The translations under genes and the position numbers were made by a program. DNA of 64,000 nucleotides, from positions 1 to 64,000 of the forward strand of contig MBPM02000003.1 of the NCBI GenBank assembly GCA_001695595.3. The letters run 5' to 3'. The stretch's first letter is position 1. Each line of letters begins with the position of its first letter. The stretch comes from Plasmopara viticola. Its lineage: Eukaryota > Oomycota > Peronosporomycetes > Peronosporales > Peronosporaceae. The notes below the pieces were generated by a model. It was not told the DNA's origin. It was given only the letters and a program-made list of their open reading frames with translations, and made no database searches. Shown here piece after piece: positions 4,618-30,620 of the stretch.

Positions 4618-4628
4618 GCCCGAGTCGG

Positions 4629-4772
4629 TCAAATGGTAGAGCGCGTCGCTTAGCATGCGAGAGGTACAGGGATCGATACCCTGCTTCTCCATTTGGCGTG
4701 TGTAGTATAGTGGTATTGGTATTCCAGTACCTCACCTTGTGGCGGTGATATGCTGGTTCGATCTCGACGCGA
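4629..4772 (+). pseudogene. Unit 0: 5'-truncated tRNA-Ala + damaged tRNA-His
   Basis: tRNA-Ala 4629-4691 lacks its 5' acceptor and part of the D stem and has a changed anticodon stem. tRNA-His 4696-4772 has an insertion in the D loop and a broken T arm. It is fused to the truncated LINE RT. The gap between the two genes is TTTG rather than a single G. Confidence 0.85.
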
Positions 4773-4944
4773 TTCTGGACGATGTTATGTGTCGAAGCTT
4801 GTCTGTCCAACGAGCGCATCGACTATTGCTTGCAAAGGTCTTTAGTAAAGCGACCTTCGATCAACATCGTGTGTCATAGTCAAAGCGGGATGGTGACGTG
4901 AACACACTTATCTATATCTAAACGAAGTTGAGTGAACATGTACC

Positions 4945-5089
4945 GGGGATGTAGCTCAAATGGTAGAGCGCTCGCTTAGCATGCGAGAGGTACAGGGATC
5001 GATACCCTGCTTCTCCAGCGTGTGTAGTATAGTGGTCAGTACCTCACCTTTGTGCGGTGATATCCCTGGTTCGAATCCGGGCACGCGCA
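4945..5089 (+). tRNA. tRNA-Ala(AGC)+tRNA-His-like, unit 1
   Basis: Ala 4945-5017, His 5018-5089. There is no base between the genes, so G-1 is lost. The His anticodon loop reads TTTGTGC instead of TTGTGGC, which shifts the anticodon to TGT. Spacer type T. Confidence 0.85.
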
Positions 5090-5243
5090 TTTCTGGACGA
5101 TGTTATGTGTCGTATTGTCTGTTTTTGCTTGCAAAGGCTTTAGTAAAGAGACCTTCGATCATATCATGTGTGTCATAGTCAAAGCGGGATGGTGGACGTG
5201 AACGCACTTATTTTATCCAAACGAAGTTGAGGTGCAATGTACC

Positions 5244-5389
5244 GGGGATGTAGCTCAAATGGTAGAGCGCTCGCTTAGCATGCGAGAGGTACAGGGATCG
5301 ATACCCTGCTTCTCCAGGCGTGTGTAGTATAGTGGTCAGTACCTCACCTTGTGGCGGTGATATCCCTGGTTCGAATCCGGGCACGCGCA
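5244..5389 (+). tRNA. tRNA-Ala(AGC)+tRNA-His(GTG), unit 2
   Basis: Ala 5244-5316, His 5318-5389; both consensus. Spacer type G (cgtgttg). Confidence 0.95.
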
Positions 5390-5544
5390 TTTCTGGACGA
5401 TGTTATGTGTCGTGTTGTTTGTTTTTGCTTGCAAAGGCTTTAGTAAAGCGACCTTCGATCACATCGTGTGTGTCATAGTCAAAGCGGGATGGTGCGACGT
5501 GAACGCACTTATCTATATCTAATCGAAGTTGAGTGCAATGTACC

Positions 5545-5686
5545 GGGGATGTAGCTCAAATGGTAGAGCGCTCGCTTAGCATGCGAGAGGTACAGGGATC
5601 GATACCCTGCTTTCCAGGCGTGTGTATAGTGGTCAGTACCTCACCTTGTGGCGGTGATATCCCTGGTTCGAATCCGGGCACGCGCA
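5545..5686 (+). tRNA. tRNA-Ala(AGC)+tRNA-His(GTG), unit 3
   Basis: Ala 5545-5616 lacks one C in the 3' acceptor. His 5618-5686 lacks three bases in the D stem. Probably non-functional pair. Spacer type T. Confidence 0.8.
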
Positions 5687-5842
5687 TTTCTGGACGATGT
5701 TATGTGTCGTATTGTCTGTTTTTGCTTGCAAAGGCTTTAGTAAAGCGACCTTCGATCACATCATGTGTGTCATAGTCAAAGCGGGATGGTGCGACGTGAA
5801 CACGCTTATCTTTATCTAAACGAAGTTGGGGTGTAATGTACC

Positions 5843-5987
5843 GGGGATGTAGCTCAAATGGTAGAGCGCTCGCTTAGCATGCGAGAGGTACAGGGATCGA
5901 TACCCTGCTTCTCCAGGCGTGTGTAGTATAGTGGTCAGTACCTCACCTTGTGGCGGTGATATCCTGGTTCGAATCCGGGCACGCGCA
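5843..5987 (+). tRNA. tRNA-Ala(AGC)+tRNA-His(GTG), unit 4
   Basis: Ala 5843-5915 consensus. His 5917-5987 lacks one C before the T stem. Confidence 0.88.
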
Positions 5988-6141
5988 TTTCTGGACGATG
6001 TTATGTGTCGATTGTCTGTTTTTGCTTGCAAAGGCTTTAGTAAAGCGACCTTCGATCACATCGTGTGTGTCATAGTCAAAGCGGGATGGTGCGACGTGAA
6101 CGCACTTATCTATATCTAAACGAAGTTGAGTGCAATGTACC

Positions 6142-6294
6142 GGGATGTAGCTCAAATGTAGAGCGCTCGGTAAGCTCGCTTAGCATGCGAGAGGTACAGG
6201 GATCGATACCCTGCTTCTCCAGGCGTGTGTAGTATAGTGGTCAGTACCTCACCTTGTGGCGGTGATATCCCTGGTTCGAATCCGGGCACGCGCA
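6142..6294 (+). tRNA. damaged tRNA-Ala + tRNA-His(GTG), unit 5
   Basis: Ala 6142-6221 has lost bases in the acceptor and D loop and carries an insertion in the anticodon stem, so it is a pseudogene. His 6223-6294 is consensus. Spacer type A. Confidence 0.85.
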
Positions 6295-6446
6295 TTTCTG
6301 GACGATGTTATGTGTCGAATTGTCTGTTTTTGCTTGCAAAGGCTTTAGTAAAGCGACCTTCGATCACATGTGTGTGTCATAGTCAAAGCGGGATGGTGCG
6401 ACGTGAACACTTATCTATATCTAAACGAAGTTGGGTGCAATGTACC

Positions 6447-6591
6447 GGGGATGTAGCTCAAATGGTAGAGCGCTCGCTTAGCATGCGAGAGGTACAGGGA
6501 TCGATACCCTGCTTCTCCAGGCGTGTGTAGTATAGTGGTCAGTACCTCACCTTGTGGCGGTGATATCCTGGTTCGAATCCGGGCACGCGCA
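6447..6591 (+). tRNA. tRNA-Ala(AGC)+tRNA-His(GTG), unit 6
   Basis: Ala 6447-6519 consensus. His 6521-6591 lacks one C before the T stem. Spacer type T. Confidence 0.9.
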
Positions 6592-6746
6592 TTTCTGGAC
6601 GATGTTATGTGTCGTATTGTCTGTTTTTGCTTGCAAAGGCTTTAGTAAAGCGACATTCGATCACATCGTGTGTGTCATAGTCAAAGCGGGATGGTGCGAC
6701 GTGAACACGCTTATCTATATCTAAACGAAGTTGAGTGCAATGTACC

Positions 6747-6892
6747 GGGGATGTAGCTCAAATGGTAGAGCGCTCGCTTAGCATGCGAGAGGTACAGGGA
6801 TCGATACCCTGCTTCTCCAGGCGTGTGTAGTATAGTGGTCAGTACCTCACCTTGTGGCGGTGATATCCCTGGTTCGAATCCGGGCACGCGCA
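6747..6892 (+). tRNA. tRNA-Ala(AGC)+tRNA-His(GTG), unit 7
   Basis: Ala 6747-6819, His 6821-6892; both consensus. Spacer type T. Confidence 0.95.
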
Positions 6893-7044
6893 TTTCTGGA
6901 CGATGTTATGTGTCGTATTGTCTGTTTTTGCTTGCAAAGGCTTTAGTAAAGAGACATTCGATCATATCATGTGTGTCATAGTCAAAGCGGGATGGTGCGA
7001 CGTGAACACGCTTATCTATATCTAAACGTTGGGTGTAATGTACC

Positions 7045-7174
7045 GGGGATGTAGCTCAAATGGTAGAGCGCTCGCTTAGCATGCGAGAGGTACAGGGATC
7101 GATACCCTGCTTCTCCAGGCGTGTGTAGTATAGTGGTCAGTACCTCACCGGTGATGTGAATCCGGGCACGCGCA
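7045..7174 (+). tRNA. tRNA-Ala(AGC)+deleted tRNA-His, unit 8
   Basis: Ala 7045-7117 consensus. His 7119-7174 has lost the anticodon loop and half the T arm. The following spacer is also shortened. Confidence 0.85.
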
Positions 7175-7259
7175 TGGACGATGTTATGTGTCCTTGCTGT
7201 TTCGATCATCCATAGGCGGGATGGTGCGACGTGAACGCATTATCTAAACGAAGACAATG

Positions 7260-7369
7260 TACGTAGCTTGGTAGAGCTCGCTTAGCATGCGAGAGGTACA
7301 GGGATTGGCGTGTGTAGTATAGTGGTCAGTACTCACCTTGTGGCTGATGGTTCGAATCCGGCACGCGCA
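7260..7369 (+). pseudogene. Unit 9: decayed tRNA-Ala and tRNA-His
   Basis: Ala remnant about 7260-7306 (5' end and T arm gone). His remnant 7308-7369 with scattered deletions. Spacer type A, shortened. Confidence 0.85.
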
Positions 7370-7506
7370 TTTCTGGACGATGTTATGTGTCGAATTGTCC
7401 TTGCAGGCTTCGACCTTCGATCATATCATGTGTGTCATAGTCAAAGCGGGATGGTTCGACGTGAACACGCTTATCTTTATCTAAACGAAGTTGGGTGTAA
7501 TGTACC

Positions 7507-7649
7507 GGGGATGTAGCTCAAATGGTAGAGCGCTCGCTTAGCATGCGAGAGGTACAGGGATCGATACCCTGCTTCTCCAGGCGTGTGTAGTATAGTGGTC
7601 AGTACCTCACCTTGTGGCGGTGATATCCTGGTTCGAATCCGGGCACGCA
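7507..7649 (+). tRNA. tRNA-Ala(AGC)+tRNA-His(GTG), unit 10
   Basis: Ala 7507-7579 consensus. His 7581-7649 lacks one C before the T stem and two bases of the acceptor. Spacer type G. Confidence 0.85.
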
Positions 7650-7803
7650 TTTCTGGACGATGTTATGTGTCGTGTTGTTTGTTTTTGCTTGCAAAGGCTT
7701 TAGTAAAGCGACCTTCGATCACATCATGTGTGTCATAGTCAAAGCGGGATGGTTCGACGTGAACACGCTTATCTTTATCTAAACGAAGTTGGTGCAATGT
7801 ACC

Positions 7804-7949
7804 GGGGATGTAGCTCAAATGGTAGAGCGCTCGCTTAGCATGCGAGAGGTACAGGGATCGATACCCTGCTTCTCCAGGCGTGTGTAGTATAGTGGTCAGT
7901 ACCTCACCTTGTGGCGGTGATATCCCTGGTTCGAATCCGGGCACGCGCA
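7804..7949 (+). tRNA. tRNA-Ala(AGC)+tRNA-His(GTG), unit 11
   Basis: Ala 7804-7876, His 7878-7949; both consensus. Spacer type T with a longer T run. Confidence 0.95.
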
Positions 7950-8105
7950 TTTCTGGACGATGTTATGTGTCGTATTGTCTGTTTTTTTGCTTCCAAGGCT
8001 TCAGTAAAGCGACATTCAATCACATCATATGTGTCTTAGTCAAAGCGGGATGGTGCGACTTGAACACGCTTATCTATATCTAAACGAAGTTGGGTATAGT
8101 GTACC

Positions 8106-8251
8106 GGGGATGTAGCTCAAATGGTAGAGCGCTCGCTTAGCATGCGAGAGGTACAGGGATCGATACCCTGCTTCTCCAGGCGTGTGTAGTATAGTGGTCA
8201 GTACCTCACCTTGTGGCGGTGATATCCCTGGTTCGAATCCGGGCACGCGCA
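8106..8251 (+). tRNA. tRNA-Ala(AGC)+tRNA-His(GTG), unit 12
   Basis: Ala 8106-8178, His 8180-8251; both consensus. Spacer type T. Confidence 0.95.
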
Positions 8252-8406
8252 TTTCTGGACGATGTTATGTGTCGTATTGTCTGTTTTTGCTTGCAAAGGC
8301 TTTAGTAAAGCGACCTTCGATCACATCATGTGTGTCATAGTCAAAGCGGGATGGTTCGACGTGAACACGCTTATCTTTATCTAAACGAAGTTGGGTGTAA
8401 TGTACC

Positions 8407-8552
8407 GGGGATGTAGCTCAAATGGTAGAGCGCTCGCTTAGCATGCGAGAGGTACAGGGATCGATACCCTGCTTCTCCAGGCGTGTGTAGTATAGTGGTC
8501 AGTACCTCACCTTGTGGCGGTGATATCCCTGGTTCGAATCCGGGCACGCGCA
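8407..8552 (+). tRNA. tRNA-Ala(AGC)+tRNA-His(GTG), unit 13
   Basis: Ala 8407-8479, His 8481-8552; both consensus. Spacer type T, but the T run is interrupted (ctggttttgc). Confidence 0.95.
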
Positions 8553-8707
8553 TTTCTGGACGATGTTATGTGTCGTATTGTCTGGTTTTGCTTGCAAAGG
8601 CTTTAGTAAAGAGACATTCGATCATATCATGTGTGTCATAGTCAAAGCGGGATGGTGCGACGTGAACACGCTTATCTATATCTAAACGAAGTTGGGTGTA
8701 ATGTACC

Positions 8708-8853
8708 GGGGATGTAGCTCAAATGGTAGAGCGCTCGCTTAGCATGCGAGAGGTACAGGGATCGATACCCTGCTTCTCCAGGCGTGTGTAGTATAGTGGT
8801 CAGTACCTCACCTTGTGGCGGTGATATCCCTGGTTCGAATCCGGGCACGCGCA
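8708..8853 (+). tRNA. tRNA-Ala(AGC)+tRNA-His(GTG), unit 14
   Basis: Ala 8708-8780, His 8782-8853; both consensus. Spacer type T. Confidence 0.95.
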
Positions 8854-9008
8854 TTTCTGGACGATGTTATGTGTCGTATTGTCTGTTTTTGCTTGCAAAG
8901 GCTTTAGTAAAGAGACATTCGATCATATCATGTGTGTCATAGTCAAAGCGGGATGGTTCGACGTGAACACGCTTATCTTTAACAAAACGAAGTTGGGTGT
9001 AATGTACC

Positions 9009-9154
9009 GGGGATGTAGCTCAAATGGTAGAGCGCTCGCTTAGCATGCGAGAGGTACAGGGATCGATACCCTGCTTCTCCAGGCGTGTGTAGTATAGTGG
9101 TCAGTACCTCACCTTGTGGCGGTGATATCCCTGGTTCGAATCCGGGCACGCGCA
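9009..9154 (+). tRNA. tRNA-Ala(AGC)+tRNA-His(GTG), unit 15
   Basis: Ala 9009-9081, His 9083-9154; both consensus. The upstream TATA-like motif is altered (tctttaacaa). Spacer type T. Confidence 0.95.
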
Positions 9155-9309
9155 TTTCTGGACGATGTTATGTGTCGTATTGTCTGTTTTTGCTTGCAAA
9201 GGCTTTAGTAAAGCGACCTTCGATCACATCGTGTGTGTCATAGTCAAAGCGGGATGGTGCGACGTGAACGCACTTATCTATATCTAAACGAAGTTGAGTG
9301 CAATGTACC

Positions 9310-9455
9310 GGGGATGTAGCTCAAATGGTAGAGCGCTCGCTTAGCATGCGAGAGGTACAGGGATCGATACCCTGCTTCTCCAGGCGTGTGTAGTATAGTG
9401 GTCAGTACCTCACCTTGTGGCGGTGATATCCCTGGTTCGAATCCGGGCACGCGCA
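9310..9455 (+). tRNA. tRNA-Ala(AGC)+tRNA-His(GTG), unit 16
   Basis: Ala 9310-9382, His 9384-9455; both consensus. Spacer type T. Confidence 0.95.
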
Positions 9456-9608
9456 TTTCTGGACGATGTTGTGTGTCGTATTGTCTGTTTTTGCTTGCAA
9501 AGGCTTTAGTAAAGCGACCTTCGATCACATCGTGTGTGTCATAGTCAAAGCGGGATGGTGCGACGTGAACGCTTATCTATATCTAAACGAAGTTGAGTGC
9601 AATGTACC

Positions 9609-9754
9609 GGGGATGTAGCTCAAATGGTAGAGCGCTCGCTTAGCATGCGAGAGGTACAGGGATCGATACCCTGCTTCTCCAGGCGTGTGTAGTATAGTGG
9701 TCAGTACCTCACCTTGTGGCGGTGATATCCCTGGTTCGAATCCGGGCACGCGCA
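9609..9754 (+). tRNA. tRNA-Ala(AGC)+tRNA-His(GTG), unit 17
   Basis: Ala 9609-9681, His 9683-9754; both consensus. Spacer type T with a changed palindrome (gcttaagtaaagc). Confidence 0.95.
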
Positions 9755-9909
9755 TTTCTGGACGATGTTATGTGTCGTATTGTCTGTTTTTGCTTGGAAA
9801 GGCTTAAGTAAAGCGACCTTCGATCACATCGTGTGTGTCATAGTCAAAGCGGGATGGTGCGACTTGAACACGCTTATCTATATCTAAACGAAGTTGGGTG
9901 TAATGTACC

Positions 9910-10055
9910 GGGGATGTAGCTCAAATGGTAGAGCGCTCGCTTAGCATGCGAGAGGTACAGGGATCGATACCCTGCTTCTCCAGGCGTGTGTAGTATAGTG
10001 GTCAGTACCTCACCTTGTGGCGGTGATATCCCTGGTTCGAATCCGGGCACGCGCA
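9910..10055 (+). tRNA. tRNA-Ala(AGC)+tRNA-His(GTG), unit 18
   Basis: Ala 9910-9982, His 9984-10055; both consensus. Spacer type T. Confidence 0.96.
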
Positions 10056-10210
10056 TTTCTGGACGATGTTATGTGTCGTATTGTCTGTTTTTGCTTGCAA
10101 AGGCTTTAGTAAAGCGACCTTCGATCACATCGTGTGTGTCATAGTCAAAGCGGGATGGTGCGACGTGAACGCACTTATCTATATCTAATCGAAGTTGAGT
10201 GCAATGTACC

Positions 10211-10356
10211 GGGGATGTAGCTCAAATGGTAGAGCGCTCGCTTAGCATGCGAGAGGTACAGGGATCGATACCCTGCTTCTCCAGGCGTGTGTAGTATAGT
10301 GGTCAGTACCTCACCTTGTGGCGGTGATATCCCTGGTTCGAATCCGGGCACGCGCA
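10211..10356 (+). tRNA. tRNA-Ala(AGC)+tRNA-His(GTG), unit 19
   Basis: Ala 10211-10283, His 10285-10356; both consensus. Spacer type A. Confidence 0.96.
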
Positions 10357-10511
10357 TTTCTGGACGATGTTATGTGTCGAATTGTCTGTTTTTGCTTGCA
10401 AAGGCTTTAGTAAAGCGACCTTCGATCACATCGTGTGTGTCATAGTCAAAGCGGGATGGTGCGACGTGAACGCACTTATCTATATCTAAACGAAGTTGAG
10501 TGCAATGTACC

Positions 10512-10657
10512 GGGGATGTAGCTCAAATGGTAGAGCGCTCGCTTAGCATGCGAGAGGTACAGGGATCGATACCCTGCTTCTCCAGGCGTGTGTAGTATAG
10601 TGGTCAGTACCTCACCTTGTGGCGGTGATATCCCTGGTTCGAATCCGGGCACGCGCA
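10512..10657 (+). tRNA. tRNA-Ala(AGC)+tRNA-His(GTG), unit 20
   Basis: Ala 10512-10584, His 10586-10657; both consensus. Spacer type T. Confidence 0.96.
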
Positions 10658-10812
10658 TTTCTGGACGATGTTATGTGTCGTATTGTCTGTTTTTGCTTGC
10701 AAAGGCTTTAGTAAAGCGACCTTCGATCACATCGTGTGTGTCATAGTCAAAGCGGGATGGTGCGACGTGAACGCACTTATCTATATCTAAACGAAGTTGA
10801 GTGCAATGTACC

Positions 10813-10958
10813 GGGGATGTAGCTCAAATGGTAGAGCGCTCGCTTAGCATGCGAGAGGTACAGGGATCGATACCCTGCTTCTCCAGGCGTGTGTAGTATA
10901 GTGGTCAGTACCTCACCTTGTGGCGGTGATATCCCTGGTTCGAATCCGGGCACGCGCA
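10813..10958 (+). tRNA. tRNA-Ala(AGC)+tRNA-His(GTG), unit 21
   Basis: Ala 10813-10885, His 10887-10958; both consensus. Spacer type T. Confidence 0.96.
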
Positions 10959-11111
10959 TTTCTGGACGATGTTATGTGTCGTATTGTCTGTTTTTGCTTG
11001 CAAAGGCTTTAGTAAAGAGACATTCGATCATATCATGTGTGTCATAGTCAAAGCGGGATGGTGCGACGTGAACGCGCTTATCTATTATAAACGAAGTTGG
11101 GTGTAATGTAC

Positions 11112-11257
11112 GGGGATGTAGCTCAAATGGTAGAGCGCTCGCTTAGCATGCGAGAGGTACAGGGATCGATACCCTGCTTCTCCAGGCGTGTGTAGTATAG
11201 TGGTCAGTACCTCACCTTGTGGCGGTGATATCCCTGGTTCGAATCCGGGCACGCGCA
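11112..11257 (+). tRNA. tRNA-Ala(AGC)+tRNA-His(GTG), unit 22
   Basis: Ala 11112-11184, His 11186-11257; both consensus. The upstream flank is altered (ctattataaacg). Spacer type T. Confidence 0.95.
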
Positions 11258-11410
11258 TTTCTGGACGATGTTATGTGTCGTATTGTCTGTTTTTGCTTGC
11301 AAAGGCTTTAGTAAAGATACATTCGATCACATCATGTGTGTCATAGTCAAAGCGGGATGGTGCGACGTGAACACTTATCTATATCTAAACGAAGTTGAGT
11401 GCAATGTACC

Positions 11411-11556
11411 GGGGATGTAGCTCAAATGGTAGAGCGCTCGCTTAGCATGCGAGAGGTACAGGGATCGATACCCTGCTTCTCCAGGCGTGTGTAGTATAGT
11501 GGTCAGTACCTCACCTTGTGGCGGTGATATCCCTGGTTCGAATCCGGGAACGCGCA
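11411..11556 (+). tRNA. tRNA-Ala(AGC)+tRNA-His(GTG), unit 23
   Basis: Ala 11411-11483 consensus. His 11485-11556 has C to A at the inner acceptor pair. Spacer type G. Confidence 0.94.
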
Positions 11557-11708
11557 TTTCTGGACGGTGTTATGTGTCGTGTTGTTGTTTTTGCTTGCAA
11601 AGGCTTTAGTAAAGCGACCTTCGATCACATCATGTGTGTCATAGTCAAAGCGGATGGTGCGACGTGAACACGCTTATCTATATCTAAACGAAGTTGGTGC
11701 AATGTACC

Positions 11709-11854
11709 GGGGATGTAGCTCAAATGGTAGAGCGCTCGCTTAGCATGCGAGAGGTACAGGGATCGATACCCTGCTTCTCCAGGCGTGTGTAGTATAGTGG
11801 TCAGTACCTCACCTTGTGGCGGTGATATCCCTGGTTCGAATCCGGGCACGCGCA
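11709..11854 (+). tRNA. tRNA-Ala(AGC)+tRNA-His(GTG), unit 24
   Basis: Ala 11709-11781, His 11783-11854; both consensus. The following spacer is shortened. Confidence 0.95.
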
Positions 11855-12001
11855 TTTCTGGACGATGTTATGTGTCGATTGTTGTTTTTGCTTGCAAAGG
11901 CTTTAGTAAAGAGACTTCGATCACATCATGTGTGTCATAGTCAAAGCGGGATGGTGCGAAACGCACTTATCTATATCTAAACGAAGTTGGTGCAATGTAC
12001 C

Positions 12002-12147
12002 GGGGATGTAGCTCAAATGGTAGAGCGCTCGCTTAGCATGCGAGAGGTACAGGGATCGATACCCTGCTTCTCCAGGCGTGTGTAGTATAGTGGTCAGTAC
12101 CTCACCTTGTGGCGGTGATATCCCTGGTTCGAATCCGGGCACGCGCA
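12002..12147 (+). tRNA. tRNA-Ala(AGC)+tRNA-His(GTG), unit 25
   Basis: Ala 12002-12074, His 12076-12147; both consensus. Spacer type T. Confidence 0.96.
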
Positions 12148-12302
12148 TTTCTGGACGATGTTATGTGTCGTATTGTCTGTTTTTGCTTGCAAAGGCTTTA
12201 GTAAAGCGACCTTCGATCACATCGTGTGTGTCATAGTCAAAGCGGGATGGTGCGACGTGAACGCACTTATCTATATCTAAACGAAGTTGAGTGCAATGTA
12301 CC

Positions 12303-12448
12303 GGGGATGTAGCTCAAATGGTAGAGCGCTCGCTTAGCATGCGAGAGGTACAGGGATCGATACCCTGCTTCTCCAGGCGTGTGTAGTATAGTGGTCAGTA
12401 CCTCACCTTGTGGCGGTGATATCCCTGGTTCGAATCCGGGCACGCGCA
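12303..12448 (+). tRNA. tRNA-Ala(AGC)+tRNA-His(GTG), unit 26
   Basis: Ala 12303-12375, His 12377-12448; both consensus. Spacer type A. Confidence 0.96.
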
Positions 12449-12602
12449 TTTCTGGACGATGTTATGTGTCGAATTGTCTGTTTTTGCTTGCAAAGGCTTT
12501 AGTAAAGCGACCTTCGATCACATCGTGTGTGTCATAGTCAAAGCGGGATGGTGCGACTTGAACACGCTTATCTATATCTAAACGAAGTTGGTGCAATGTA
12601 CC

Positions 12603-12748
12603 GGGGATGTAGCTCAAATGGTAGAGCGCTCGCTTAGCATGCGAGAGGTACAGGGATCGATACCCTGCTTCTCCAGGCGTGTGTAGTATAGTGGTCAGTA
12701 CCTCACCTTGTGGCGGTGATATCCCTGGTTCGAATCCGGGCACGCGCA
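12603..12748 (+). tRNA. tRNA-Ala(AGC)+tRNA-His(GTG), unit 27
   Basis: Ala 12603-12675, His 12677-12748; both consensus. Spacer type T. Confidence 0.96.
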
Positions 12749-12903
12749 TTTCTGGACGATGTTATGTGTCGTATTGTCTGTTTTTGCTTGCAAAGGCTTT
12801 AGTAAAGCGACCTTCGATCACATCGTGTGTGTCATAGTCAAAGCGGGATGGTGCGACGTGAACGCACTTATCTATATCTAAACGAAGTTGAGTGCAATGT
12901 ACC

Positions 12904-22633: not shown

Positions 22634-22788
22634 TTTCTGGACGATGTTATGTGTCGAATTGTCTGTTTTTGCTTGCAAAGGCTTTAGTAAAGCGACCTTC
22701 GATCACATCGTGTGTGTCATAGTCAAAGCGGGATGGTGCGACGTGAACGCACTTATCTATATCTAAACGAAGTTGAGTGCAATGTACC

Positions 22789-22934
22789 GGGGATGTAGCT
22801 CAAATGGTAGAGCGCTCGCTTAGCATGCGAGAGGTACAGGGATCGATACCCTGCTTCTCCAGGCGTGTGTAGTATAGTGGTCAGTACCTCACCTTGTGGC
22901 GGTGATATCCCTGGTTCGAATCCGGGCACGCGCA
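22789..22934 (+). tRNA. tRNA-Ala(AGC)+tRNA-His(GTG), unit 61
   Basis: Ala 22789-22861, His 22863-22934; both consensus. Spacer type T. Confidence 0.97.
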
Positions 22935-23089
22935 TTTCTGGACGATGTTATGTGTCGTATTGTCTGTTTTTGCTTGCAAAGGCTTTAGTAAAGCGACCTT
23001 CGATCACATCGTGTGTGTCATAGTCAGAGCGGGATGGTGCGACGTGAACGCACTTATCTATATCTAAACGAAGTTGAGTGCAATGTACC

Positions 23090-23235
23090 GGGGATGTAGC
23101 TCAAATGGTAGAGCGCTCGCTTAGCATGCGAGAGGTACAGGGATCGATACCCTGCTTCTCCAGGCGTGTGTAGTATACTGGTCAGTACCTCACCTTGTGG
23201 CGGTGATATCCCTGGTTCGAATCCGGGCACGCGCA
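23090..23235 (+). tRNA. tRNA-Ala(AGC)+tRNA-His(GTG), unit 62
   Basis: Ala 23090-23162 consensus. His 23164-23235 shares the D-loop G to C change of unit 59. Spacer type T. Confidence 0.96.
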
Positions 23236-23390
23236 TTTCTGGACGATGTTATGTGTCGTATTGTCTGTTTTTGCTTGCAAAGGCTTTAGTAAAGCGACCT
23301 TCGATCACATCGTGTGTGTCATAGTCAAAGCGGGATGGTGCGACGTGAACGCACTTATCTATATCTAAACGAAGTTGAGTGCAATGTACC

Positions 23391-23536
23391 GGGGATGTAG
23401 CTCAAATGGTAGAGCGCTCGCTTAGCATGCGAGAGGTACAGGGATCGATACCCTGCTTCTCCAGGCGTGTGTAGTATAGTGGTCAGTACCTCACCTTGTG
23501 GCGGTGATATCCCTGGTTCGAATCCGGGCACGCGCA
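23391..23536 (+). tRNA. tRNA-Ala(AGC)+tRNA-His(GTG), unit 63
   Basis: Ala 23391-23463, His 23465-23536; both consensus. The spacer after it is the first of the divergent right-edge type. Confidence 0.97.
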
Positions 23537-23692
23537 TTTCTGGACGATGTTATGTGTCGTATTGGCTGTTTTCTGCTTGCAAAGGCTTCAGTAAAGCGAA
23601 ATTAAACCACACCATGTGTGTCTAAGTCAAAGCTGGTGGGTGCGACGTGAACACGCTTATTTCTATCTAAACGAAGTTGAGTGCAATGTACC

Positions 23693-23838
23693 GGGGATGT
23701 AGCTCAAATGGTAGAGCGCTCGCTTAGCATGCGAGAGGTACAGGGATCGATACCCTGCTTCTCCAGGCGTGTGTAGTATAGTGGTCAGTACCTCACCTTG
23801 TGGCGGTGATATCCCTGGTTCGAATCCGGGCACGCACA
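23693..23838 (+). tRNA. tRNA-Ala(AGC)+tRNA-His(GTG), unit 64
   Basis: Ala 23693-23765 consensus. His 23767-23838 has G to A in the 3' acceptor (cacgcac). A core-type spacer follows, so core and edge spacers are interleaved here. Confidence 0.95.
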
Positions 23839-23993
23839 TTTCTGGACGATGTTATGTGTCGTATTGTCTGTTTTTGCTTGCAAAGGCTGTAGTAAAGCGA
23901 CCTTCGATCACATCGTGTGTGTCATAGTCAAAGCGGGATGGTGCGACGTGAACGCACTTATCTATATTTAAACGAAGTTGAGTGCAATGTACC

Positions 23994-24139
23994 GGGGATG
24001 TAGCTCAAATGGTAGAGCGCTTACTTAGCATGCGAGAGGTACAGGGATCGATGCCCTGCTTCTCCAGGCGTGTGTAGTATAGTGGTCAGTACCTCACCTT
24101 GTGGCGGTGATATCCCTGGTTCGAATCCGGGCACGCGCA
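23994..24139 (+). tRNA. tRNA-Ala(AGC)+tRNA-His(GTG), unit 65
   Basis: Ala 23994-24066 has three substitutions (anticodon stem CTTAC; T loop). His 24068-24139 consensus. T6 terminator follows. Confidence 0.92.
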
Positions 24140-24295
24140 TTTCTGGACGATGTTATGTGTCGTATTGTCTGTTTTTTGCTTGCCAAGGCTTCAGTAAAGC
24201 GACATTAAATCACACCATGTGTGTCTTAATCAAAGCGGGTGGGTGCGACGTGAACACACTTATTTATATCTAAACGATGTTGGGTGTAATGTACC

Positions 24296-24440
24296 GGGGA
24301 TGTAGCTCAAATGGTAGAGCGCTCGCTTAGCATGCGAGAGGTACAGGGATCGATACCCTGCTTCTCCAGGCGTGTGTAGTATTGTGGTCAGTACCTCACC
24401 TTGTGGCGGTGATATCTCGGCTCGAATCCGGGCATGCGCA
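24296..24440 (+). tRNA. tRNA-Ala(AGC)+tRNA-His(GTG), unit 66
   Basis: Ala 24296-24368 consensus. His 24370-24440 has a damaged variable loop and T stem (tctcggctcgaat). Confidence 0.9.
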
Positions 24441-24595
24441 TTTCTGGACGATGTTATGTGTCGTATTGTCTGTTTTTTGCTTGCAAAGGCTTTAGTAAAG
24501 CGACATTAAATCACATCATGTGTGTCTCAGTGAAGGCGCGAGGGTGTGACGTGAACACGCTTATTTATATCGAAACGAAGCTGATTTAATGTACC

Positions 24596-24741
24596 GGGGA
24601 TGTAGCTCAAATGGTAGAGCGCTCGCTTAGCATGCGAGAGGTACAAGGATCGATACCCTGCTTCTCCAGGCGTGTGTTGTATAGTGTTCAGTACCTCACC
24701 TTGTGGCGGTGATATCCCTGGTTCGAATCCGGGCACGCGCA
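24596..24741 (+). tRNA. tRNA-Ala(AGC)+tRNA-His(GTG), unit 67
   Basis: Ala 24596-24668 has a T-stem change (acaaggatc). His 24670-24741 has two D-arm changes. Confidence 0.92.
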
Positions 24742-24897
24742 TTTCTGGACGATGTTATGTGTCGTATTGTCTGTTTTTTGCTTGCAAAGGCTTCAGTAAA
24801 GCGAAATTAAACCACACCATGTGTGTCTAAGTCAAAGCTGGTGGGTGCGACGTGAACACGCTTATTTCTATCTAAACGATGTTGGGTGTAATGTACC

Positions 24898-25043
24898 GTG
24901 GATGTAGCTCAAATGGTAGAGCGCTCGCTTAGCATGCGAGAGGTACAGGGATCGATACCCTGCTTCTCCAGGCGTGTGTAGTATAGTGGTCAGTACCTCA
25001 CCTTGTGGTGGTGATATCCCTGGTTCGAATCCGGGCACGCGCA
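24898..25043 (+). tRNA. tRNA-Ala(AGC)+tRNA-His(GTG), unit 68
   Basis: Ala 24898-24970 starts GTGGATG, losing the G2:C71 pair; units 69 and 70 share this. His 24972-25043 has one change in the anticodon loop (TTGTGGT). Confidence 0.93.
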
Positions 25044-25199
25044 TTTCTGGACGATGTTATGTGTCGTATTGTCTGTTTTTTGCTTGCAAAGGCTTCAGTA
25101 AAGCGAAATTAAACCACACCATGTGTGTCTAAGTCAAAGCTGGTGGGTGCGACGTGAACACGCTTATTTATATCTAAACGATGTTGGGTGTAATGTACC

Positions 25200-25345
25200 G
25201 TGGATGTAGCTCAAATGGTAGAGCGCTCGCTTAGCATGCGAGAGGTACAGGGATCGATACCCTGCTTCTCCAGGCGTGTGTAGTATAGTGGTCAGTACCT
25301 CACCTTGTGGCGGTGATATCCCTGGTTCGAATCCGGGCACGCGCA
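25200..25345 (+). tRNA. tRNA-Ala(AGC)+tRNA-His(GTG), unit 69
   Basis: Ala 25200-25272 (GTGGATG start), His 25274-25345 consensus. Confidence 0.95.
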
Positions 25346-25501
25346 TTTCTGGACGATGTTATGTGTCGTATTGTCTGTTTTTTGCTTGCAAAGGCTTCAG
25401 TAAAGCGAAATTAAACCACACCATGTGTGTCTAAGTCAAAGCTGGTGGGTGCGACGTGAACACGCTTATTTATATCTAAACGATGTTGGGTGTAATGTAC
25501 C

Positions 25502-25647
25502 GTGGATGTAGCTCAAATGGTAGAGCGCTCGCTTAGCATGCGAGAGGTACAGGGATCGATACCCTGCTTCTCCAGGCGTGTGTAGTATAGTGGTCAGTAC
25601 CTCACCTTGTGGCGGTGATATCCCTGGTTCGAATCCGGGCACGCGCA
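25502..25647 (+). tRNA. tRNA-Ala(AGC)+tRNA-His(GTG), unit 70
   Basis: Ala 25502-25574 (GTGGATG start), His 25576-25647 consensus. Units 69 and 70 are near-identical 302-bp copies. Confidence 0.95.
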
Positions 25648-25695
25648 TTTCTGGACGATGTTATGTGTCGTATTGTCTGTTTTTTGCTTGCAAAG

Positions 25696-25859
25696 CCATA
25701 CACGCCAGTACCCTAATGGGGGTCTCATGTTCTGACTGGTTTTTCATAGATTGTTGATGCAAGAAAAAAATTAAGTGTGTAAGAGGGGTGGCCTTCTGGC
25801 AAAAAAAAGTCTCAATCCTTCGGCGGCTATTTCACCTTGAATATAATAATATCTCGTCT
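25696..25859. repeat. 164-bp spacer insertion, copy 1
   Basis: The spacer is interrupted after gcttgcaaag by 164 bp unrelated to the unit, ending before agtaaagcgac. A same-length copy with a few substitutions interrupts the next unit. It has no ORF and no tRNA-like boxes that I can see. Confidence 0.85.
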
Positions 25860-25976
25860 AGTAAAGCGACATTAAATCACACCATGTGTGTCTTAGTCAA
25901 AGCGGGTGGATGCGACGTGAACACATTTATTTATATCTAAACGATGTTGGGTGTAATGTACCGGGGATGTAGCTCA

Positions 25977-26240
25977 GTTGAAAGTTGTCATGTATTTAAT
26001 CTTAACACAACCTATACCTTCTCGGTTTGGCTAGGATTTCTACATTTACATTTTAAGTCTGAAGATTCTTTTTCATCTTGTTATTGCCTTATTCTTGATC
26101 GGGGTCGGAAATATTTCGCTTGGGGCCGTCCTCTCCCCAAGTCTGGTTGATTACGAAGTTTGTCCGGTGTGGGGCTCGAACCCGCAACACACACCGTGAA
26201 GACCAGAAGCATAATCCACTAACCCACGCCACCAGGTCAA
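25977..26240 (-). mobile_element. tRNA-derived SINE inserted in tRNA-Ala
   Basis: A 264-bp insertion sits inside the tRNA-Ala of unit 71. It is flanked by a perfect 14-bp duplication, GGGGATGTAGCTCA, at 25963-25976 and 26241-26254. Read on the minus strand from 26240, it starts with a tRNA-like head: a box A-like TGGCGTGGGTTAGTGGA at about 26216-26233 and a B box GGTTCGAGCCC at 26172-26182. The body is about 190 bp and has no coding potential. The 3' end has no poly(A). The target duplication and internal Pol III promoter are standard SINE marks; the family is not identified. Confidence 0.85.
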
Positions 26241-26385
26241 GGGGATGTAGCTCAAATGGTAGAGCGCTCGCTTAGCATGCGAGAGGTACAGGTACGATAC
26301 CCTGCTTCTCCAGGCGTGTGTGGTATAGTGGTCAGTACCTCACCTTGTGGCGGTGATATCCCTGGTTCGAATCCGGGCACGCGCA
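26241..26385 (+). tRNA. tRNA-Ala(AGC)+tRNA-His(GTG), unit 71
   Basis: Ala 26241-26312 is complete because the target duplication rebuilt its 5' end, but its T arm is altered (caggtacgatacc). Its upstream flank is now SINE sequence, so the TATA/CAA motifs are separated from it. His 26314-26385 has one D-arm change. Confidence 0.88.
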
Positions 26386-26433
26386 TTTCTGGACGATGTT
26401 ATGTGTCGTATTGTCTGTTTTTTGCTTGCAAAG

Positions 26434-26597
26434 CCATACACGCCAGTACCCTAATGGGGGTCTCATGTTCTAAGTAGTTGTTCCTCGATTGTTGATGCAA
26501 GAAAAAAATTAAGTGTGTAAGAGGGGTGGCCTTCTGGCAAAAAAAAGTCTCAATCCTTCGGCGGCTATTTCACCTTGAAAATAATAATATGTCGTCT
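26434..26597. repeat. 164-bp spacer insertion, copy 2
   Basis: Second copy of the 25696-25859 insertion at the identical spacer position. The insertion therefore predates a unit duplication, and the SINE landed in only one of the two copies. Confidence 0.85.
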
Positions 26598-26700
26598 AGT
26601 AAAGCGACATTAAATCACACCATGTGTGTCTTAGTCAAAGCGGGTGGGTGCGACGTGAACACATTTATTTATATCTAAACGATGTTGGGTGTAATGTACC

Positions 26701-26846
26701 GTTGATGTAGCTCAAATGGTAGAGCGCTCGCTTAGCATGCGAGAGGTACAGGGATCGATACCCTGCTTCTCCAGGCGTGTGTAGTATAGTGGTCAGTACC
26801 TCTTCTTGTGGTGGTGATTTCCCTGGTTCGAATCCGGGCATGCGCA
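26701..26846 (+). tRNA. tRNA-Ala(AGC)+diverged tRNA-His(GTG), unit 72
   Basis: Ala 26701-26773 starts GTTGATG. His 26775-26846 has broken anticodon-stem pairs (cctcttcttgtggtggtga). Confidence 0.88.
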
Positions 26847-27002
26847 TTTCTGGACGATGTTATGTGTCGTATTGTCTGCTTTTTGCTTGCAAAGGCTTCA
26901 GTAAAGCGACATTCAATCACATCATGTGTCTCTTAGTCAAAGCCGGTGGGTGCGACGTGAACACACTTATTTATATCTAAACGCTGTTGGGTGTAATGTA
27001 CC

Positions 27003-27148
27003 GGGAATGTAGCTCAAAAGGTAGAGCGCTTGCATAGCATGCGAGAGGTACAGGGATCGATGCCCTGCTTCTCCAGGCGTGTGTAGTATAGTGGTCAGTA
27101 CCTCACCTTGTGGCGGTGATATCCCTGGTTCGAATCCGGGCACGCGCA
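27003..27148 (+). tRNA. tRNA-Ala(AGC)+tRNA-His(GTG), unit 73
   Basis: Ala 27003-27075 starts GGGAATG and has anticodon-arm changes (CTTGC-ATAGCAT). His 27077-27148 consensus. Confidence 0.9.
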
Positions 27149-27304
27149 TTTCTGGACGATGTTATGTGTCGTATTGTCTGTTTTTTGCTTGCAAAGGCTT
27201 CAGTAAAGCTACATTGAATCACACCATGTGTGTCTTAGTCAAAGCGGGTGGGTGCGACGTGAACACACTTATTTATATCTAAAAGATGTTGGGTGTAATG
27301 TACC

Positions 27305-27450
27305 GGGGATGTAGCTCAAATGGTTGAGCGCTCGCTTAGCATGCGAGAGGTACAGGGATCGATACCCTGCTTCTCCAGGCGTGTGTTGTATAGTGGTCAG
27401 TACCTCACCTTGTGGCGGTGATTTCTCTAGTTCGAATCCGGGCACGCGCA
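27305..27450 (+). tRNA. tRNA-Ala(AGC)+tRNA-His(GTG), unit 74
   Basis: Ala 27305-27377 has one D-arm change. His 27379-27450 has a damaged T stem (ttctctagttcgaa). Confidence 0.9.
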
Positions 27451-27606
27451 TTTCTGGACGATGTTATGTGTCGTATTGTCTGTTTTTTGCTTGCAAAGGC
27501 TTCAGTAAAGCGTCATTAAATCACACCATGTGTGTCTTAGTCAAATCGGGATGGTGCGACGTGAACAGGCTTTTTTATATCTAAACGAAGTTGGGTGTAA
27601 TGTACC

Positions 27607-27752
27607 GGGGATGTAGCTCAAATGGTAGAGCGCTCGCTTAGCATGCGAGAGGTACAGGGATCGATACCCTGCTTCTCCAGGCGTGTGTAGTATAGTGGTC
27701 AGTACCTCACCTGGTGGCGGTGATATCCCTGGTTCGAATCCGGGCACGCGCA
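27607..27752 (+). tRNA. tRNA-Ala(AGC)+tRNA-His(GTG), unit 75 (last on plus strand)
   Basis: Ala 27607-27679 consensus. His 27681-27752 has G instead of the invariant T33 (loop TGGTGGC), which should impair function. Confidence 0.92.
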
Positions 27753-27789
27753 TTTCTGGACGATGTTACGTGTCGTATTGTCTTTTTTT

Positions 27790-28660
27790 TACTTTCAAAG
27801 GCTTTAGCATAGCCTATATACCTATCAAATCCGCAGTGTGACGCTGAAGCGGTCGCCACGATCGATCTGTTTGTCTTAGCCGTAAGTATCGGCCCTTCTT
27901 AAAATTGTATTCCTAGCGTTTAACACGGCACATTAAAATTGGATCGCCTGCTGAAGGTCCAATTCAATTTCTAGCAAATATTACACGCTTTGAGCAATTG
28001 TGCCGATAGTATATTCAATCGATATAGCAGTTGATGAAAAAGTTTGTTTACCGAACATAATTACACAATTGACGTATTAAGTTTGACTAAATGTTTATTG
28101 AAACCAACTTACGGCAACGTGGACGAGATATATCCAATCATATCGTTGTGCCCGACTTTATCAATCAGAGAGTTTTGTAAAAGAGTACAAGTGCCAACTT
28201 GGGTGTGTACTCAACAAAATTGAGAAGTAAGCGTTATTTGATCATATGATGTGTGTCTTAGTAAATCCCTAGATAATAAATTCTGTCACAATGGTATGAC
28301 GAAATAGTAAATATCGCATTTACGTTGCCGTTAGTTATTTTTTAAAAACTATTTGGCATGCTTAATACGTCAATTGTGTAATAATATTCGGTAAACAAAC
28401 CCTTTCATCGACTGCTATATCGATTAAAAAACACTATCACCACAGTTGCTCAAAGCGTGTAAGTTTTTAGGAATTTGAATTGGATCTTCAGCAGGCAATA
28501 CAATACAAATATACTGTGTGAAAGCTAGATATGCATTTGTAAGAAGTATCGATACTTACGGCTAAGAATCAGATAGTTCGATCGTGGCGACCGCTTCAGC
28601 GGCACACTGCGGATTTGATAGGTATATAGGCTGTGCTAAAGCCTTTGAAAGTAAAAAACA
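27790..28660. repeat. Large imperfect palindrome where the array flips strand
   Basis: The left arm (about 27790-28190) and right arm (about 28265-28660) are inverted copies. For example, 27812-27865 (cctatatacctatcaaatcc...) returns reversed at 28579-28632, and 28030-28082 returns reversed at 28359-28412. The arms carry frequent small differences, and about 75 bp lie at the centre. The arms are the long-spacer version of the tRNA unit. No gene is seen. Confidence 0.85.
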
Positions 28661-28690
28661 GACACTACGACACATAACATCGTCCAGAAA

Positions 28691-28837
28691 TCCGCGTGCC
28701 CGGATTCGAACCAAAAAATATCACCGCCACAAGTTGAGGTACTGACCACTATACTGCACACGCCTGGAGAAGCAGGGTATCGATCGCTATACATCTCGCA
28801 TGCTAAGCGAGCGCTCAACTTTTTGAGCTACGTCCCC
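28691..28837 (-). tRNA. tRNA-Ala(AGC)+tRNA-His(GTG), inverted unit R1
   Basis: Minus strand: Ala 28837-28765, then His 28763-28691. Both are diverged (the His T arm reads TTTTTTGG; the Ala T stem is broken). Probably a pseudogene pair. Confidence 0.85.
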
Positions 28838-28865
28838 GGTACATTACACCCAACTTCGCTTAAAA

Positions 28866-29395
28866 TACAAAGAAGCGTGTTTACGTAGCAACCTCCCGCT
28901 TTGACTAAGACACACATCATATGATCAAATGTCGCTTTCTTCTCAATTTTGTTGAGTACACACCCAAGTTGGCAATTGTACTTTCTACGCAACTCCCGGT
29001 ATGATAAAGTCGGGTACAATGATATGATAGGGAACATCTCGTCCACGTTGCGGTTAGATGGTTTTAATTAACATATAATCAAACATAATACGTCAATTTT
29101 GTAATCATGTTCGGTAAAAAAAACCTTTCGTCAACTGCTATATCGATTTAAGATACTATCGGCACAATTGCTCAAAGCGTGTAATATTAGCTAGAAATTG
29201 AACTGGTCCTTCAGCAGGCGATCTAATTCAAATGTACTGTGTCAAACGCTAGAAATTCATTTTTAAGAAGTGTCGATACTGACGGCTAAGATAAAAATAA
29301 ATCGATCATGGTGACGACTCAGCGCTACACTGTGGATTTGGTAGGTAAAAAGGCTATACTCAAGCCTTTCCAAGCAAAAAGCAGGCACTAAGACA
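28866..29395. repeat. Long spacer, second copy
   Basis: About 530 bp, in the same orientation as the right arm of the 27.8-28.7 kb palindrome and clearly related to it. For example, it carries cacacccaagttggcaattg and the taatacgtcaatttt segment. It separates inverted units R1 and R2. Confidence 0.8.
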
Positions 29396-29413
29396 CAAAA
29401 CATCGTCCAGAAA

Positions 29414-29559
29414 TGCGCGTGCCCGGATTCGAACCAGGGATGTCACCGCCACAAGGTGAGGTACTGACCACTATACTGCACACGCCTGGAGAAGCAGGGT
29501 ATCGATCCCTGTACCTCTCGCATGCTAGGCGAGCGCTTTACCATTTGTGCTACATCCCC
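29414..29559 (-). tRNA. tRNA-Ala(AGC)+tRNA-His(GTG), inverted unit R2
   Basis: Minus strand: Ala 29559-29487 (loop CTAGCAT keeps AGC; two D-arm changes), His 29485-29414 nearly consensus. One G lies between the genes, as in the plus-strand array. Confidence 0.9.
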
Positions 29560-29715
29560 GGTACATTACACCCAACTTCGTTTAGATATGTATAAGCGTG
29601 TTCACGTCGCACCATTCCGCTTTGACTATGACACACATGATATGATCGAATGTCGCTTTACTCAAGCCTTTCCAAGCAAAAAATAGGCACTACGACACAA
29701 AACATCGTCCAGAAA

Positions 29716-29861
29716 TGCGCGTGCCCGGATTCGAACCAGGGATGTCACCGCCACAAGGTGAGGTACTGACCACTATACTTCACACGCCTGGAGAAGCAGG
29801 GTATCGATCCCTGTACCTCTCGCATGCTAAGCGAGCGCTCTACCATTTGAGCTACATCCCC
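29716..29861 (-). tRNA. tRNA-Ala(AGC)+tRNA-His(GTG), inverted unit R3
   Basis: Minus strand: Ala 29861-29789 consensus, His 29787-29716 with small changes. The R2-R3 distance is 302 bp, so the short-spacer unit also exists on this arm. Confidence 0.93.
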
Positions 29862-30018
29862 GGTACATTACACCCAACTTCGTTTGGATATAGATAAGCG
29901 TGTTCACGTCGCACCATCCCGCTTTGACTAAGACACACATGATACGATCGATAGTTGCTTTACAGAAGCCTTTGTAAGCAAAAAAACAGACAATACGACA
30001 CATAACATCGTTCAGAAA

Positions 30019-30164
30019 TGCGCGTGCCCGAATTCAAGCCAGGGATATCACCGTCAAAAGGTGAGGTACTGACCACTATTCTACACAAATCTGGAGAAGC
30101 AGGGTATCGATTCCTGTACCTCTCGCATGCTAAGCGAGCGCTCTACCATCTGAGCTACATCCCC
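30019..30164 (-). tRNA. tRNA-Ala(AGC)+mutated tRNA-His, inverted unit R4
   Basis: Minus strand: Ala 30164-30092 intact apart from D-loop and T-stem changes. His 30090-30019 has a decayed acceptor and T arm, and its anticodon loop TTTTGAC shows TTG instead of GTG. The His member is probably dead. Confidence 0.85.
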
Positions 30165-30179
30165 GGTACATTACACCCA

Positions 30180-30620
30180 ACTTCGGTTAGAATACCAATA
30201 AGCGTATTCACGACGCACTCTCCCTCTCTTACTGCGACACCGATTACTTCAACGGACGTCGCTTTCTCCTCAACTCTTAGTGTACACATCCATGTTTAAT
30301 TTGTACTGTAAGCAGAACATTCCGGACGTTAATGTCGAACACAGGGATATAGTTAGTGATACCTCGTCCACGCTGTCGCAAACGGTGGTTTGAATCACTA
30401 CTAAGTTTAATGTCTAATCATACTTTTTACAAACTTTGACATCGATCTCCCTCTTGATCAGCGGTACAATTTAATTCATTGCTCATAGCGTGTAATATTT
30501 GTAAGGAATGAAAACGGACCTCAAGTAAGCAATAACGTACGAATATATTATGTGGAACATCAAAAATCCCTTTGTTAAACCTGTCGATACTAACGGCTAA
30601 ATAAAGATATATGAATCAAT
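30180..30620. repeat. Decayed long spacer, third copy
   Basis: Weak but continuous resemblance to the 28.9-29.4 kb spacer (cctcaactcttagtgtacacatcc; gcgtgtaatatttg; gtcgatactaacggctaa). No gene seen. Confidence 0.6.

What the first reader, a model, noticed from the sequence alone, without database searches (positions are those of the whole stretch)
4618..30180. Eighty tandem tRNA-Ala/tRNA-His pairs in 25 kb
Seen directly: 76 pairs on the plus strand and four inverted ones, about 160 tRNA genes or relics of only two specificities. Entamoeba is the best-known case of protist tRNA genes in long tandem arrays. A two-gene unit at this copy number with a 301-bp period, carried in an otherwise ordinary gene region, is unusual. 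It may be a dosage reservoir for AGC-Ala and GUG-His, or a selfish or structural satellite built from tRNA genes.
Basis: partly seen in the sequence, partly recalled or inferred. Interest (0 to 1): 0.9.

Follow-up and report, generated by a model that had tools for sequence, protein, structure and literature searches.

The report
Giant tandem tRNA-Ala/tRNA-His gene array
A downy-mildew-like oomycete keeps what look like all its genes for two transfer RNAs as hundreds of near-identical joined pairs, an arrangement already known in this group of organisms, and the single letter between the two genes may also supply a piece of the histidine tRNA that other eukaryotes add with an enzyme not found in this genome.

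Summary
There are 76 plus-strand and 4 minus-strand Ala(AGC)/His(GTG) pairs with a modal period of 301 bp. The genome (92,937,831 bases, 358 contigs) matches Plasmopara viticola INRA-PV221 (PMC6660063).

The array is larger than seen: the exact junction occurs 441 times genome-wide, and contigs C287 and C31 carry the same array up to their ends. Dimeric tRNA arrays are already described in Phytophthora infestans (PMC9584435), so this is a known kind.

It is a gene array, not a satellite. In C31 and C287, 7 of 146 tRNA-pair sites show substitutions against 30 of 117 spacer sites. Pattern searches for an unpaired Ala(AGC) or His(GTG) gene found only array members, so the arrays are probably the sole nuclear source. 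The leftmost 'relic' is an assembly chimera.

One feature is less ordinary. A single G lies between the genes in 75 of 80 window pairs, exactly at tRNA-His position -1. No Thg1, the enzyme that normally adds this G in eukaryotes, was found, while two controls were. A genome-encoded G-1 is plausible but unproven.

The parts
4619..27752 (+). main array: 76 Ala(AGC)-His(GTG) pairs in head-to-tail units, mode 301 bp
14968..15113 (+). one representative pair: tRNA-Ala 14968-15040, single G at 15041 (His position -1), tRNA-His 15042-15113
15146..15150 (+). T5 run starting 33 nt after tRNA-His, putative RNA polymerase III terminator of the same unit (T-run of 4 or more at 31-34 nt in 74 of 80 pairs)
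   Evidence: coordinates follow from the offset
28691..30164 (-). four inverted, mostly more diverged Ala-His pairs (28691-28837, 29414-29559, 29716-29861, 30019-30164)
   Evidence: ARAGORN of the 8 genes
27753..29413 (.). inverted-repeat region between the two orientations; about 420-500 bp spacer arms, 82-84% alike, perhaps an older long-spacer form of the unit
4610..4850 (+). consensus chimera of LINE and array sequence (assembly artefact), read as the first 'relic' pair
1..4609 (+). LINE-type retrotransposon with reverse transcriptase (PF00078), 98.5% identical to a copy lying inside the array on contig C287
56386..56531 (-). isolated decayed Ala-G-His pair outside the array, single-base spacing kept

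Best explanation
This is part of a large RNA-polymerase-III gene array that supplies probably all nuclear tRNA-Ala(AGC) and tRNA-His(GTG) of an oomycete matching Plasmopara viticola. Each about 301-bp unit holds the two genes one base apart, with internal A and B boxes and a T-run only after tRNA-His, so each unit is most likely transcribed as one Ala-His precursor and cut apart. The array grows and stays uniform by unequal crossing-over or conversion: most interior units are near-identical and divergence is greatest at an edge. Selection acts on the tRNA genes. Shown: copy number, uniformity, lower variation in the tRNA genes than in the spacer, no unpaired gene found by pattern. Inferred: co-transcription, processing order, mechanism of homogenisation, species name.
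For: 441 exact copies of the 33-nt Ala-G-His junction genome-wide: 63 in the window, 90 on C287, 93 in the last 39,934 bases of C31, so 195 elsewhere on C3, C31 or contigs not fetched. 186 tRNA genes on the 34-kb contig C287 and 192 in the C31 stretch, all called Ala or His. Sites with substitutions: tRNA pair 7 of 146 against spacer 30 of 117 in 186 units of C31 and C287 (Fisher p 1.5e-6); 46 of 146 against 66 of 117 in all 259 units (p 5.8e-5); 209 of 259 units have both genes and the G intact. Ala(AGC) genes whose second following base is not G: 3 hits, all in the arrays. His genes without C at -3: 2 hits, both in the C287 array. A and B box motifs (recalled consensus) in both genes. T4 inside the pair in 2 of 80, both inverted edge copies; T-run of 4 or more at 31-34 nt after His in 74 of 80. 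Of the 10 plus-strand window units from 23.4 kb on, 9 carry 18-23 substitutions; the 30 units at 14.4-23.4 kb carry 40 in all.
Against: No RNA data were available: expression, co-transcription and share of the mature pool are untested. The sole-source claim rests on patterns with limited reach: in their array-matching form they hit 59 of 80 His copies and 70 of 80 Ala copies of the window, and an unpaired His gene with C at -3 or a divergent gene would be missed. The Ala genes carry a U6-U67 mismatch in the acceptor stem with no substitution at either position in 259 units, odd for the only Ala(AGC) gene. The predicted lowest-energy fold of the joined precursor is not two cloverleaves. Near the LINE on C287, 27 successive plus units carry 4-15 substitutions each, so divergence is not confined to outer edges. 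The site tests treat sites as independent although units are related.
Confidence: 0.85

Rival explanations
1. Templated G-1 (an addition to the best explanation rather than an exclusive rival). The one base between the genes is tRNA-His position -1, a G. [quoted passage not shown]
For: 75 of 80 window pairs have exactly one G between the genes; 4 of 259 units on three contigs depart at or beside this place. The decayed outlying pair keeps it. Thg1: 0 matches with PF04446, PF14413 and yeast Thg1 at E up to 10, while HisRS (PF13393) and tRNase Z (PF13691, 63 positions) are found. Genome-encoded G-1 is reported for C. elegans (PMC6471195 figure legend), and loss of Thg1 after encoding G-1 was proposed (PMC2904730 passage).
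Against: No RNA 5' ends seen. A one-base spacer in a homogenised array is one evolutionary observation, not 441. With A73 the G-1 cannot form a Watson-Crick pair, and RNase P might remove it (recalled reasoning). Thg1 could be missing from the assembly (95.7% BUSCO, PMC6660063); of the 14 control genomes the Thg1 models ring only in Methanosarcina acetivorans, and no eukaryotic genome known to have Thg1 was run as a control. Other oomycetes could not be examined.
Confidence: 0.4
2. The G is coincidence: tRNA-His has no G-1 and an unusual HisRS tolerates this, as in Trypanosoma brucei and Acanthamoeba, or Thg1 exists but is not in the assembly.
For: Both protists lack G-1 and Thg1 (passages of PMC6471195, and PMC9976931). 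By chance one base in four is G.
Against: Needs either an atypical HisRS (not tested) or an unlucky assembly gap; gives no reason for the one-base G spacing in the outlying decayed pair, though that pair may simply have inherited it.
Confidence: 0.4
3. Selfish or structural satellite built from tRNA genes.
For: High copy number, homogeneity, inverted pieces at the edge.
Against: tRNA positions vary far less than spacer; no unpaired Ala(AGC) or His(GTG) gene found by pattern, so the cell probably needs the array.
Confidence: 0.05
4. Assembly artefact: a short array inflated by mis-assembly.
For: The leftmost unit is a LINE/array chimera and left-edge units are rich in indels.
Against: Units carry distinct variants along the array; the same array ends contig C31 and makes up most of C287, the usual sign of under-assembly; the assembly is PacBio-based (PMC6660063); high tRNA copy number in P. 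infestans was confirmed by read depth (PMC9584435).
Confidence: 0.04

Closest known systems
Dimeric/trimeric tRNA gene arrays of Phytophthora infestans (PMC9584435; section 9 and passages read)
   Same: tandem arrays of units of two or three tRNAs, also of different amino acids, many copies; Val(AAC)-Ser(AGA) dimer of 850 nt, 85 copies nearly all on one chromosome; about two-thirds of tRNA families on a single chromosome
   Different: here the pair is Ala(AGC)-His(GTG), the unit 301 bp, the genes one base apart; the authors find much higher diversity in di- and trimeric arrays than in monomeric ones, whereas these units are mostly near-identical; the section read names no Ala-His unit and does not discuss G-1 or Thg1
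Entamoeba tRNA gene arrays (PMC2652664, abstract and outline read)
   Same: almost all tRNA genes in tandem arrays, units of up to five tRNA genes, most copies uniform within an isolate
   Different: E. histolytica and E. dispar units carry short tandem repeats between genes; unrelated lineage; here genes nearly abut
Arabidopsis SYY (Ser-Tyr-Tyr) cluster (PMC12308677, abstract and outline read)
   Same: tandem multi-tRNA unit expanded by duplication
   Different: described as redundant and silenced in most tissues; here no other genes for the two tRNAs were found
Dimeric tRNA precursors of fission yeast (title seen in the reference list of PMC9584435; otherwise recalled)
   Same: two tRNA genes a few bases apart, expected to be transcribed together
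   Different: not amplified into long arrays and a different tRNA pair (recalled)
Genome-encoded G-1 of C. elegans tRNA-His (PMC6471195, figure legend read)
   Same: G at -1 in the gene in a eukaryote
   Different: there RNase P is said to retain it; here the -1 base directly follows base 73 of another tRNA, and retention is unproven

Membership tests
oomycete multimeric tRNA gene arrays (P. infestans type) | tandem repeat unit with two or more different tRNA genes, many copies | tested here: met
oomycete multimeric tRNA gene arrays (P. infestans type) | host is an oomycete | tested here: met
oomycete multimeric tRNA gene arrays (P. infestans type) | family confined to one chromosome (about two-thirds of families there) | tested here: inconclusive
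   array on C3, C31 and C287 and perhaps on contigs not listed; orientation and the shared LINE fit one locus C31-C287-C3, but no link was shown
functional polymerase III tRNA genes | A and B boxes, tRNA fold, downstream T-run | tested here: met
   Ala has one acceptor-stem mismatch
functional polymerase III tRNA genes | mature tRNA made | not testable with these tools
   no RNA data
eukaryotes with genome-encoded tRNA-His G-1 | G at -1 in the gene | tested here: met
eukaryotes with genome-encoded tRNA-His G-1 | G-1 kept in mature tRNA | not testable with these tools
   needs 5'-end sequencing
eukaryotes with genome-encoded tRNA-His G-1 | no need of Thg1 (gene absent) | tested here: inconclusive
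   no match in the assembly with positive controls for other families; the assembly may be incomplete

The most novel reading that the evidence does not exclude
A eukaryote that lost Thg1 and hard-wired tRNA-His identity into a dicistronic gene: all its tRNA-His is cut from Ala-G-His precursors, where one tRNase Z cut after tRNA-Ala both ends that tRNA and creates the 5'-phosphorylated G-1 of tRNA-His. The obligatory pairing would explain why the two genes were amplified together and why no lone His gene was found.
Probability: 0.33. Interest if true: 0.75.

Novelty: new variant of a known kind. Interest (0 to 1): 0.52.

Why it matters
As an array it adds a clear case, with counts and evidence of selection, to the reported pattern that oomycetes keep tRNA genes in very large arrays. 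If the base between the genes is the mature G-1, it would be a new solution to tRNA-His identity in eukaryotes and would make the loss of a usually essential enzyme testable by one RNA end-mapping experiment.

Tried and rejected
Satellite reading: rejected on site variation and lack of other genes found by pattern. Assembly inflation: rejected for the array as a whole, accepted for the first unit. C31 array as the other haplotype of the C3 array: not supported; the first 9.7 kb of the C31 stretch and the window right of 30.2 kb share only four scattered pieces of 135-1,283 bp. Unit-order comparison between contigs gave no clean register (best mean overlap 0.25, median 0.07, for C3 plus against C287 plus; 0.5 for C287 minus against C31 minus but with 0 informative units), so no allelic map is claimed. 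Search for other Ala isoacceptors, to see whether the U6-U67 mismatch is general: 0 hits, pattern probably too strict. A loosened Ala-His junction pattern in genome contigs and viral contigs: 0 hits each; these are prokaryote and viral collections, so this says little. Passages of two Phytophthora tRNA-fragment papers held no whole-word 'His', 'histidine' or 'Ala'. Papers holding both Thg1 and Phytophthora: 0 in the held library. The linkage-map paper of the species has no match for the scaffold names tried or for tRNA. One search used a wrong gap length of mine and its zero counts for nothing (done correctly). In one search my index offsets for the D stems and the His anticodon stem were wrong; only its acceptor-stem rows and folds are used.
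Full report
WHAT IS THERE. The window is bases 1-64000 of contig C3 of a 92,937,831-base, 358-contig genome. The P. viticola INRA-PV221 table gives 92.94 Mb and 358 scaffolds (PMC6660063, passages read), and a BRCT protein of the window (32565-35390, minus) matches 21 proteins, of which the 20 named ones are from Phytophthora, Peronospora and Plasmopara halstedii. The species name is therefore an inference. The modal unit is 301 bp (37 of 73 units measured).

ANATOMY OF THE UNIT. tRNA-Ala(AGC) 73 nt, one G, tRNA-His(GTG) 72 nt, then a T-run, then spacer. Exactly one G separates the genes in 75 of 80 pairs by the scan. Of the other five, two show no base (one of them, at 5545, keeps the G when the whole unit is aligned), two overlap through decay or damage, and one is the chimeric first unit. 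2 of 80 pairs contain T4 inside, both inverted edge copies; 74 of 80 have a T-run of 4 or more starting 31-34 nt after His, 51 of them T5 at 33; 2 have one at 14 nt and 4 have none within 60 nt. Both genes have A and B box matches to recalled consensus motifs. This is the layout expected of one Pol III transcript per unit, which is inferred, not shown; the lowest-energy fold of the joined RNA is not two cloverleaves.

HOW BIG IT IS. The exact 33-nt junction occurs 441 times in the genome, 313 forward and 128 reverse (only the first places are listed, all on C3 and C31). Counted locally: 63 in the window, 90 on C287, 93 in the last 39,934 bases of C31. The remaining 195 lie in sequence I did not fetch. 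C287 (34,245 bp) is array on both sides of a LINE, minus strand to its left and plus strand to its right, 186 tRNA genes. C31 ends in a minus-strand array, 192 tRNA genes in the stretch taken. The window's LINE (1-4609) is 98.5% identical to the C287 LINE. These orientations fit one locus, C31 - C287 - C3, diverging from a LINE; this is a conjecture, since unit order gave no register.

WHAT IT IS FOR. Two pattern searches looked for genes outside the pair. Ala(AGC) genes whose second following base is not G: 3 hits in the genome, all array members (C3:4650, C3:4976, C287:30509). His genes without C at -3: 2 hits, both in the C287 array. In their array-matching form the patterns hit 70 of 80 Ala and 59 of 80 His copies of the window, plus the outlying pair at 56 kb for His, so their reach is good but not full. 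Within it, every Ala(AGC) and His(GTG) gene is in a pair. In 186 units of C31 and C287, 7 of 146 sites of the tRNA pair (G-1 included) show substitutions, against 30 of 117 spacer sites (p 1.5e-6); for each contig alone p is 1.2e-4 and 6.8e-6; central window units 9 of 146 against 19 of 117 (p 0.015); right-edge and inverted window units 34 of 146 against 47 of 117 (p 0.005); all 259 units 46 of 146 against 66 of 117. Units were dropped unless the next Ala start lay 250-340 nt on; the window thus gives 73 units from 80 Ala genes. The test leaves out the 38-bp trailer. Selection keeps the genes; the array is not a mere satellite.

HOW IT EVOLVES. Units at 14.4-23.4 kb are identical or nearly so (40 substitutions in 30 units); 9 of the 10 from 23.4 kb on carry 18-23, and the two inverted units measured 18 and 27. 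C31 is near-uniform; on C287 the 27 plus units next to the LINE carry 4-15 substitutions and the other 30 carry 0-3. Beyond the array inverted copies with about 420-500-bp spacer arms survive, 82-84% alike. This is the picture of unequal crossing-over or conversion with divergence left at edges and beside an insertion; the P. infestans authors also infer unequal crossing-over (PMC9584435). At the left, indels abound and the first unit is a LINE-array patchwork: consensus error rather than decay (inference).

KNOWN OR NEW. P. infestans has 7,519 predicted tRNA genes on its chromosomes, about 64% in arrays of one gene and 36% in di- or trimeric arrays (PMC9584435, section read). In the present genome Lys(TTT) and Thr(TGT) arrays also exist (I identified the tRNAs in 14 of the 30 loci). 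So the array is a member of a known kind. I saw no Ala-His unit named in the section read. P. infestans di- and trimeric arrays are said to be much more diverse than its monomeric ones, which is not so here.

THE G BETWEEN THE GENES. tRNA-His in most organisms carries G at -1, added by Thg1 in many eukaryotes; T. brucei and Acanthamoeba lack it, C. elegans encodes it (PMC6471195, passages and legend read). Here the one intergenic base is that G. Thg1 was sought with PF04446, PF14413 and yeast Thg1 at E up to 10: no candidate at all. Controls for other families in the same genome succeeded: HisRS, 1 match, and the 63-position tRNase Z family, 2 matches at E about 1e-12. The Thg1 models ring in 1 of 14 control genomes, all prokaryotes; no eukaryote with known Thg1 could be run. 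Absence from the assembly is thus fairly well supported, absence from the organism less so. That tRNase Z leaves a 5'-phosphate on the downstream piece is recalled. Taken together, one cut could finish tRNA-Ala and start tRNA-His with pG-1. Against it: no RNA evidence, a one-in-four chance of G, possible trimming by RNase P, and other oomycetes unexamined. I put the full model at about one in three.

VERDICT. Observation confirmed, interpretation partly right, kind already known in oomycetes, with a testable twist that raises the interest.

Noticed in passing
window 1-4609; C287 (L043) about 860-6790: A LINE with reverse transcriptase sits inside the tRNA array on C287; one junction is at the 5' end of a tRNA-Ala gene, the other inside a tRNA-His gene, and the array orientation flips across it. 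Whether it targets tRNA genes is open (one locus).
   Followed up: partly
array Ala genes, e.g. window 14968-15040: tRNA-Ala(AGC) has a U6-U67 mismatch in the acceptor stem, with no substitution at either position in 259 units.
   Followed up: partly
G000 C27:80-85475, C140, C16: Other tandem tRNA arrays in the same genome: Lys(TTT) with spacings of about 520-590 bp and Thr(TGT); on C27 and C16 they lie near the contig start, so tRNA arrays may break this assembly.
   Followed up: partly
window 56386-56531 (-): Isolated decayed Ala-G-His pair about 26 kb from the array, not called by ARAGORN.
   Followed up: partly
window 25695-26600: Array units here are interrupted by insertions; two of about 160 bp share a segment beginning GCCATACACGCCAGTACCC, perhaps a small mobile element (seen by eye).
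   Followed up: no
window 42562-43101 (-): Copia-type reverse transcriptase piece (RVT_2).
   Followed up: no
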